Shown piece by piece: positions 564 through 1,368 of a DNA stretch of 64,000 nucleotides. Each line of letters starts with the position of its first letter. Positions within the stretch are counted from its first letter, which is position 1. The notes under the pieces were generated by a model. It did not search any database and was not told the origin of the DNA. It saw only the letters and a program-made list of their open reading frames with translations. This DNA comes from Akkermansiaceae bacterium (GTDB lineage: Bacteria > Verrucomicrobiota > Verrucomicrobiia > Verrucomicrobiales > Akkermansiaceae), in the NCBI GenBank assembly GCA_015061985.1, contig SUVN01000006.1, positions 1 to 64,000 on the forward strand, written 5' to 3'. The position numbers were made by a program, and so were the translations under genes.

Positions 564-652
564 GCGGACTACGCCGATTATTACACAAATGAGAACGTCC
601 CTACAACAAACGGGGACTTTTCAAAACTTTGGGGCACAAGTGCTTCCCCTCC

Positions 653-745
653 CACATTTTCCGAACGACTTTTCCACCAATCGCCCACATTTTCTGTACG
701 ACTTTTCTACCGATCCCGCACATTTTCTGCACGACTCTACTCTAT
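653..745 (+). repeat. Three tandem repeats, period 33 bp, core CACATTTTCYG
   Basis: CACATTTT cores start at 653, 686 and 719 (exact 33-bp steps). Confidence 0.85.
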
Positions 746-904
746 TGCCAAGGGTTGAAAAGGGATGCGCAGGCAATCCGATGCATGCTTTCAGCTCCAT
801 TCGTATGAGTCAGAACAATATTGAAGGAAAAGCATATGAGGGATAAAAAGCTAGTCACTCTGTATCAACGGTATTCATAGCATATCAACAACAGAGAAGG
901 AAAA

Positions 905-1168
905 GTGAAATTGTGCCTGACGGCACAGTGAAATTCTCGCCAAAGGCGAGAGTGAAATTATCCGCTTGGCGGATAGTGAAATTACCGCCGCTTGGCGGCG
1001 GTAGTGATGAAGAATGGCAGCCCAAGGGGCTGCGGAAAGATAACACCCTGGGAGGGCGTAGGCTTGCCGTAGACCCCTGCTGCCAAAGCAGCAATTTCAC
1101 CGGCGCACAGAGCCGATTTCACGCGGCGCTAACCGGATTTCACTCTGCCCAAATGAGCAGGATTTCAC
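905..1168. repeat. Array of distinct hairpins joined by AGTGAAATT linkers (AATTTCAC in the right half)
   Basis: GTGCC/GGCAC, CTCGCC/GGCGAG, ATCCGC/GCGGAT, ACCGCCGC/GCGGCGGT, GCAGCCC/GGGCTGC, GCTGC/GCAGC stems separated by a constant linker. Confidence 0.85.
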
Positions 1169-1221
1169 TTTTATTTCTCAGGATGCTTCATCAGCATGGT
1201 ACCTACACCATATTTTCGGTG

Positions 1222-1300
1222 AGAAAACGTGCAAAAACGCCCTATTTTTCATTAAGAAAATGTGCATACAAAACTTGTTTCTCCATTGAGAAATGTGAAA
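1222..1300 (-). repeat. Three repeats, period 33 bp, core GCACATTTTCT on the minus strand
   Basis: AGAAAACGTG, AGAAAATGTG, AGAAATGTG end at 1231, 1264 and 1297 (33-bp steps), inverted relative to 653..745. Confidence 0.75.
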
Positions 1301-1368
1301 CAAAGTAACTTTTCACATTGACAACAAAAGAAATAGATGATAATCTTCTTTCAAAGAAAAACACCACC

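What the first reader, a model, noticed from the sequence alone, without database searches (positions are those of the whole stretch)
640..1310. Inverted triplets of 33-bp-period repeats flank a hairpin array between a recombinase and an ATPase gene
CACATTTTCYG cores at 653, 686 and 719 are spaced exactly 33 bp. On the other side of the array the same core (GCACATTTTCT on the minus strand) recurs three times with GTG ends at 1231, 1264 and 1297, again 33-bp spacing, in inverted orientation. The order integrase - 3 iterons - hairpin array - 3 inverted iterons - DUF4143 ATPase looks like a bounded cassette or a recombinase/replication-like binding architecture not explained by any gene.
Basis: partly seen in the sequence, partly recalled or inferred. 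Interest (0 to 1): 0.85.

Follow-up and report, generated by a model that had tools for sequence, protein, structure and literature searches.

The report
Self-recognition repeats of defence-like ATPase genes
The two sets of three 33-base repeats are most likely the DNA docking arrays that a very common but untested family of candidate phage-defence ATPase genes carries in front of its own promoter; one set serves the ATPase gene still present and the other is the scar left where a second ATPase gene was lost.

Summary
The repeats are real: the only two runs of three matching sites at 33-bp spacing in the 64-kb window. They do not belong to the integrase or to the hairpin array (a dispersed Rfam Gut-1 element). 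They belong to the ATPase gene (AAA_14+DUF4143, PADLOC candidate defence family PDC-S01). In 66 of 100 relatives from many phyla, direct repeats of 32-33 bp lie within 200 bp upstream of the start codon; control regions show none at that period. The repeats sit at helical-turn steps from the -35 box. Each paralogue has its own variant, and one repeat base follows one protein residue: Q387 with G, K/R387 with T, T387 with C (64 of 69 loci; 12 joint changes on the tree, rank 1 of 6560 pairs). A prediction written down beforehand held in 28 of 29 further loci. The resident ATPase (K387) fits the right triplet; the left triplet fits a Q387 ATPase, and relative G009 has such a gene there. Arrays also occur on both sides of ATPase genes and alone at orthologous sites. 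Binding and autoregulation are inferred; function is untested.

The parts
651..749 (-). left ('solo') array: three 33-bp units, sites 651-674, 684-707, 717-740, core AAAAGTCGTnCnGAAAATGTG in the sense of a lost leftward ATPase gene
   Evidence: syntenic G009:C48 has one unit, an ATPase gene, then three units at this place
761..846 (+). remnant of a four-helix-bundle (TIGR02436) gene, 3' end only
   Evidence: window 761-1037 is 89% identical to C11 (L009 4728-4453), which covers the end of an intact TIGR02436 gene; context, not part of the array system
894..1179 (.). Gut-1 hairpin element: hairpins separated by GTGAAATT on the left half and AATTTCAC on the right half
   Evidence: RF01706; 32 similarity matches in the own genome; unrelated to the 33-bp arrays
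1210..1299 (+). right array: three 33-bp-spaced sites 1210-1233, 1243-1266, 1276-1299, just upstream of the ATPase promoter
1318..1346 (+). predicted sigma-70 promoter of the ATPase: TTGACA 1318-1323, 17-bp spacer, TAATCT 1341-1346
   Evidence: 53 bp after the second site's core, that is 20 bp after the third
1369..2718 (+). AAA+ ATPase (AAA_14 + DUF4143; PADLOC PDC-S01): AAA domain, winged helix, PD-(D/E)XK-like domain; R265 and K387 are the residues that covary with the repeat
3..563 (+). C-terminal part of a tyrosine recombinase, cut by the contig start; neighbour, not part of the array system
   Evidence: PF00589; full-length copies elsewhere in the genome

Best explanation
The 33-bp triplets are cognate binding arrays (promoter iterons) of the neighbouring family of AAA+ ATPase/PD-(D/E)XK proteins (candidate defence family PDC-S01). 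The right array sits directly upstream of the promoter of the resident ATPase. The left array is a solo array left behind when a second, differently specified ATPase gene was lost by recombination between array copies. Most likely the ATPase itself reads each 33-bp unit with its winged helix (half-site AAAATGTG) and its nuclease-like domain (half-site AAAAxTC), assembles along the array one protomer per three helical turns, and thereby controls its own promoter. Shown here: the conserved arrays, their spacing and promoter phase, residue-base covariation with a successful prediction, double arrays, a solo array at an orthologous site. Inferred: direct binding, assembly on the array, autoregulation, and the route by which the second gene was lost.
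For: 32-33-bp direct repeats upstream of 66/100 ATPase genes, with 0/96 and 0/94 at that period in distal windows, 0/104 inside the ORF and 0/29 for another DUF4143 subfamily; a further, partly overlapping set gave 39 at 33 bp, 25 at 32 bp and none at any other period among 108. Motif aAAAxTCsTnCGAAAAATGTG with neighbouring sites at 33 bp (80), 32 bp (32) or 66 bp (5); shuffled sequence has two sites in 4 of 500. Distance of the last site to the -35 box clusters at 5-10, 19-21 and 29-31 bp, plus multiples of 33. Residue 387 vs motif base 5: 12 joint changes on the tree, Fisher 3.8e-7, first of 6560 pairs; pre-registered prediction 28/29, Q with G in 6/6 against 0/23, Fisher 2.1e-6. Residue 265, in the predicted recognition helix, covaries with the end of the core. 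In the window itself K387/R265 fits the right array; the left array (G at base 5) fits Q387, the residue of the G009 ATPase at that site. Solo array at the purQ site of G253 where G006, G002 and G250 have array-ATPase-array.
Against: About a third of ATPase genes show no clear array at the threshold used, including one of the three close paralogues in the own genome (L214). The 265 covariation is only weakly confirmed out of sample (15/22 against a 13/22 baseline; R/K against G Fisher 0.009). The 69 training loci are related, so tree counts are approximate. A few arrays are inverted relative to the gene, which a simple activator at a fixed face would not predict. No binding, transcription or phage experiment was possible.
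Confidence: 0.78

Rival explanations
1. The arrays are primarily the ends of a mobile unit: the ATPase-nuclease cuts or pairs its own arrays to excise or insert the array-ATPase unit, and promoter control is secondary.
For: Arrays with the same unit on both sides of the ATPase in L048, L051, L205, L208, L210, L212; solo array at an orthologous site; G007, 98% identical next door, lacks the ATPase and right array; a residue beside the nuclease motif covaries with the repeat; E364, D366, E379, K381 invariant among 52 sequences.
Against: 3' arrays were found in only a handful of genes, all in Akkermansia (3 clear cases among the loci tested); ordinary homologous recombination between direct repeats explains the solo arrays; no target-site duplication or circular form was seen; the fixed promoter phase is not needed for mobility.
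Confidence: 0.25
2. The arrays are bound by an unrelated host regulator that controls this gene family.
For: The arrays sit where an activator or repressor would.
Against: The unit sequence differs between paralogues in one genome and follows residue 387 of the ATPase; the arrays occur in many phyla with the same gene.
Confidence: 0.06
3. Recombinase core sites or an integron/cassette boundary of the neighbouring tyrosine recombinase.
For: The integrase lies next to the left array, and another copy lies next to an ATPase elsewhere in the genome.
Against: Only 7 of 170 ATPase loci hold an integrase-like match; the core with up to 2 mismatches occurs in the own genome only at the three left units, while full-length integrase copies lie on other contigs.
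Confidence: 0.02
4. Replication-type iterons of an initiator-like AAA+/winged-helix protein (an Orc1/Cdc6- or plasmid-Rep-like origin).
For: Distant fold similarity to Orc1/Cdc6 bound to origin DNA (2v1u, 2qby) and direct repeats next to the gene.
Against: Many chromosomal copies per genome (8 close ones in G250, 7 in G248 and G251); TM-scores only 0.26-0.31; a nuclease-like domain is fused; the arrays abut a promoter.
Confidence: 0.04

Closest known systems
PADLOC candidate defence family PDC-S01 (ATPase fused to PD-(D/E)XK)
   Same: The gene is a member by profile (PDLC04786, E 2.5e-166) and by architecture.
   Different: The publications found here (e.g. PMC12988326) describe the protein only; no mention of promoter arrays or residue-base matching was found.
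Plasmid iterons with autoregulated Rep proteins (from general knowledge)
   Same: Direct repeats at helical spacing beside the gene of a winged-helix protein, each protein with its own repeat sequence.
   Different: 33-bp (three-turn) units, chromosomal, upstream of a sigma-70-like promoter, AAA+ with a nuclease-like domain; no replicon seen.
Archaeal Orc1/Cdc6 with origin recognition boxes
   Same: AAA+ plus winged helix; fold search returns Orc1/Cdc6-DNA complexes.
   Different: Weak global similarity, extra PD-(D/E)XK domain, tandem 33-bp array at a promoter.
Rfam Gut-1 (RF01706)
   Same: The hairpin array between the triplets is this family.
   Different: It is a dispersed element unrelated to the 33-bp arrays.

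Membership tests
PDC-S01 (protein) | match to the family's profile HMM | tested here: met
   PDLC04786 E 2.5e-166 over residues 1-438
PDC-S01 (protein) | ATPase fused to a PD-(D/E)XK-type domain with catalytic residues | tested here: met
   AlphaFold2 model, mean pLDDT 93.6; E364, D366, E379, K381 and Walker residues invariant in 52 sequences
PDC-S01 (protein) | anti-phage activity | not testable with these tools
   experimental validation is reported as pending for most PDCs (PMC12988326)
iteron-type cognate array | tandem direct repeats at regular helical spacing beside the gene of a DNA-binding protein | tested here: met
iteron-type cognate array | the neighbouring protein specifically recognises the repeats | tested here: inconclusive
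   residue-base covariation and 28/29 prediction; no binding assay possible
iteron-type cognate array | part of a replicon | not tested
   multi-copy chromosomal genes; no origin test made
tyrosine-recombinase att/core sites or integron | sites travel with the recombinase | tested here: not met
   7 of 170 array/ATPase loci hold an integrase match
CRISPR array | identical repeats separated by unique spacers of similar length | tested here: not met
   units are contiguous 33-bp repeats with a conserved core of about 24 bp and 8-9 bp between
Gut-1 RNA (hairpin array only) | covariance-model score above the gathering threshold | tested here: met
   58.9 bits against 50

The most novel reading that the evidence does not exclude
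One of the most abundant candidate defence families in prokaryotes is a self-addressing system: each ATPase-nuclease reads, through its winged helix and its nuclease-like domain, a private 33-bp code written upstream of its own gene (two-turn, 22-23-bp codes in a sister subfamily), so that many insulated copies coexist in one genome; the same arrays delimit the unit and let it be lost or gained as array, array-gene-array or solo array.
Probability: 0.4. Interest if true: 0.93.

Novelty: new variant of a known kind. Interest (0 to 1): 0.83.

Why it matters
PDC-S01 is reported as the fourth most common defence-like system in prokaryotes, yet what it senses and does is unknown (PMC12988326). A promoter array and a simple residue-to-base rule give a direct handle: which DNA the protein binds, how it is controlled, why many copies coexist, and which single substitution should switch specificity. 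It also means that solo arrays mark places where such genes were lost.

Tried and rejected
Integrase-site model: rejected. Gut-1 as part of the unit: rejected, since only 3 of 170 ATPase loci have three or more Gut-1 linkers. A DNA query across relatives alone found just 6 genomes because the unit sequence diverges; the periodicity test was needed. A 3' array as a general feature: not supported (3 clear cases; extra Akkermansia cases). Domain-level Mantel comparison of protein and motif distance gave no domain a clear advantage; only single residues stood out. The rule for residue 265 was only partly confirmed. An empty site with a target-site duplication was sought at the purQ and phoU loci and not found; instead a solo array and a plain absence were seen. 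Literature searches for DUF4143, COG1373, 33-bp repeats and PDC-S01 found nothing on promoter arrays; only open-licence PMC papers could be searched.

Full report
Observation. Left units are 651-683, 684-716, 717-749; right sites are 1210-1233, 1243-1266, 1276-1299 on the plus strand. A motif model finds exactly two runs of three sites at 33-bp spacing in 64 kb, these two, and none in 6000 simulated strands. The model was trained on 100 promoters that include this locus; the repeat finders found the left array without any model.

What lies between. The hairpin array 894-1179 is the Rfam family Gut-1. Similar elements occur at some 30 other places in the genome, and none of the 13 other contig stretches fetched around them holds the core CACATTTTC. 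The recombinase is a fragment cut by the contig start; the 33-bp core with up to two mismatches occurs in the genome only at the left triplet.

The repeats belong to the ATPase. DNA similarity to the left triplet among 59 genomes is found in six same-genus genomes, the own one included, and the hits that could be paired lie just upstream of homologues of the ATPase in divergent orientation (G009, G035 twice, G018). The 500 bp upstream of 26 homologues show tandem units of about 33 bp, each gene with its own sequence. In 80 loci from many phyla the significant best period was 33 bp in 30 and 32 bp in 19 cases, another value once. With controls: 66 of 100 upstream regions against 0 of 96, 0 of 94, 0 of 104 and 0 of 29 at 32-33 bp. 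A further 108 fetches, about three quarters of them new, gave 39 at 33 bp, 25 at 32 bp and no other period.

Anatomy. The shared unit is bipartite: aAAA-x-TC, a short variable stretch, then GAAAAATGTG. Sites follow each other at 33 or 32 bp. In 47 of 54 Akkermansia promoters the last detected site lies 5-10, 19-21 or 29-31 bp, or that plus 33 or 66, before a TTGACA-like box, i.e. at steps of about one helical turn. Arrays are mostly in gene sense; a few are inverted, which fits a DNA site rather than an RNA element.

The protein. It matches PDC-S01 of PADLOC and no NCBIfam model. The predicted structure is confident: AAA domain, helical linker, winged helix at about 229-305, PD-(D/E)XK-like domain at about 319-443 (domain names are my reading of the secondary structure, the Pfam matches and PMC12988326). 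Nearest solved folds are a Pyrococcus ATPase (2qen) and Orc1/Cdc6-type initiators, with low TM-scores.

A recognition code. Among 69 non-redundant loci with at least two sites, base 5 of the unit is G with Q387 in 24 of 25, T with K or R387 in 35 of 37, C with T387 in 5 of 5. The pair ranks first of 6560 residue-position pairs by joint changes on a tree built without these columns: 12 joint changes, Fisher 3.8e-7. Residue 265, at the start of the predicted recognition helix, is the next standout: R with ATGTG, K with ATGTA, P with ATGCA. I wrote the prediction in the notebook, fetched new loci, and tested 29 that had at least two sites and at most 93% protein identity to the training set: 28 of 29 correct for residue 387 (baseline 22), Q with G in 6 of 6 against 0 of 23 (Fisher 2.1e-6). 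In one genome (G304) a Q387 paralogue has G while three K387 paralogues have T. For residue 265 the out-of-sample result is weaker (15 of 22; Fisher 0.009).

Back to the window. The resident ATPase has K387 and R265. The right array reads TTTC...AAAATGTG, as the code requires. The left array reads AAAAGTC...AAAATGTG, which calls for Q387. G009 has at this place one unit, then an ATPase gene with Q387 (NLQAKSL), then three units; the window has the outer flanks of both sides joined at the unit. So the left triplet is best read as a solo array after loss of that gene. The opposite direction, a gene inserted into an array, is not excluded.

Arrays as ends. In several Akkermansia genes a second array with the same unit follows the stop codon (L048, L051, L205, L208, L210, L212). 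At the purQ site G006, G002 and G250 have array-ATPase-array, G253 has a solo array with matching flanks on both sides, and the other genomes looked at have none. In G007, 98% identical at phoU, the window's ATPase and right array are absent.

Scope. PDLC04788-type relatives include some 33-bp arrays (6 of 27 above threshold), while PDLC04790-type relatives tend towards 22-23 bp (best lag in 12 of 28, four above threshold), two turns instead of three. This was not followed further.

Mechanism. Shown: arrays, spacing, promoter phase, covariation and prediction, double and solo arrays. Inferred: the ATPase binds its own array with both domains, assembles along it and controls its promoter; the nuclease-like domain may also act there. 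What this does for the cell, and whether it concerns phages, is unknown.

Limits. Only open-licence papers were searched; most genomes are metagenome assemblies; relatedness of sequences inflates simple counts; no experiment was possible.

Noticed in passing
L009 (own genome C11) 2986-5584: Array of about five Gut-1-like hairpin elements (about 250 bp each, symmetric, Rfam Gut-1 matches on both strands) enclosing an IS200/IS605-like Y1 transposase ORF (3301-3843) and a four-helix-bundle TIGR02436 ORF (4642-5007), next to a full-length copy of the window's tyrosine recombinase. Gut-1, filed as an sRNA, looks here like a dispersed mobile hairpin element.
   Followed up: partly
window 32952-33079: A second Gut-1-like stretch in the window (79% identity).
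   Followed up: no
L347, L356, L357, L360: PDLC04790-type PDC-S01 genes have upstream direct repeats of 22-23 bp (L356 56/60 matches) instead of 33 bp.
   Followed up: partly
window 52438-53673 (minus): Another PDC-S01-type (PDLC04790) ATPase gene with one in-frame TGA.
   Followed up: no
L057 690-1330: Several tandem copies of an array-promoter region (about 220 bp apart) in front of one ATPase gene.
   Followed up: no
L117 5864 and L140 1170: Further 33-bp arrays with quite different unit sequences upstream of second ATPases only about 27-33% identical to the window's.
   Followed up: partly
window 589-846: ORF that runs through the left array and ends in the remnant of a four-helix-bundle gene (SSIRMSQNNIEGKAYEG); likely not a gene.
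   Followed up: partly
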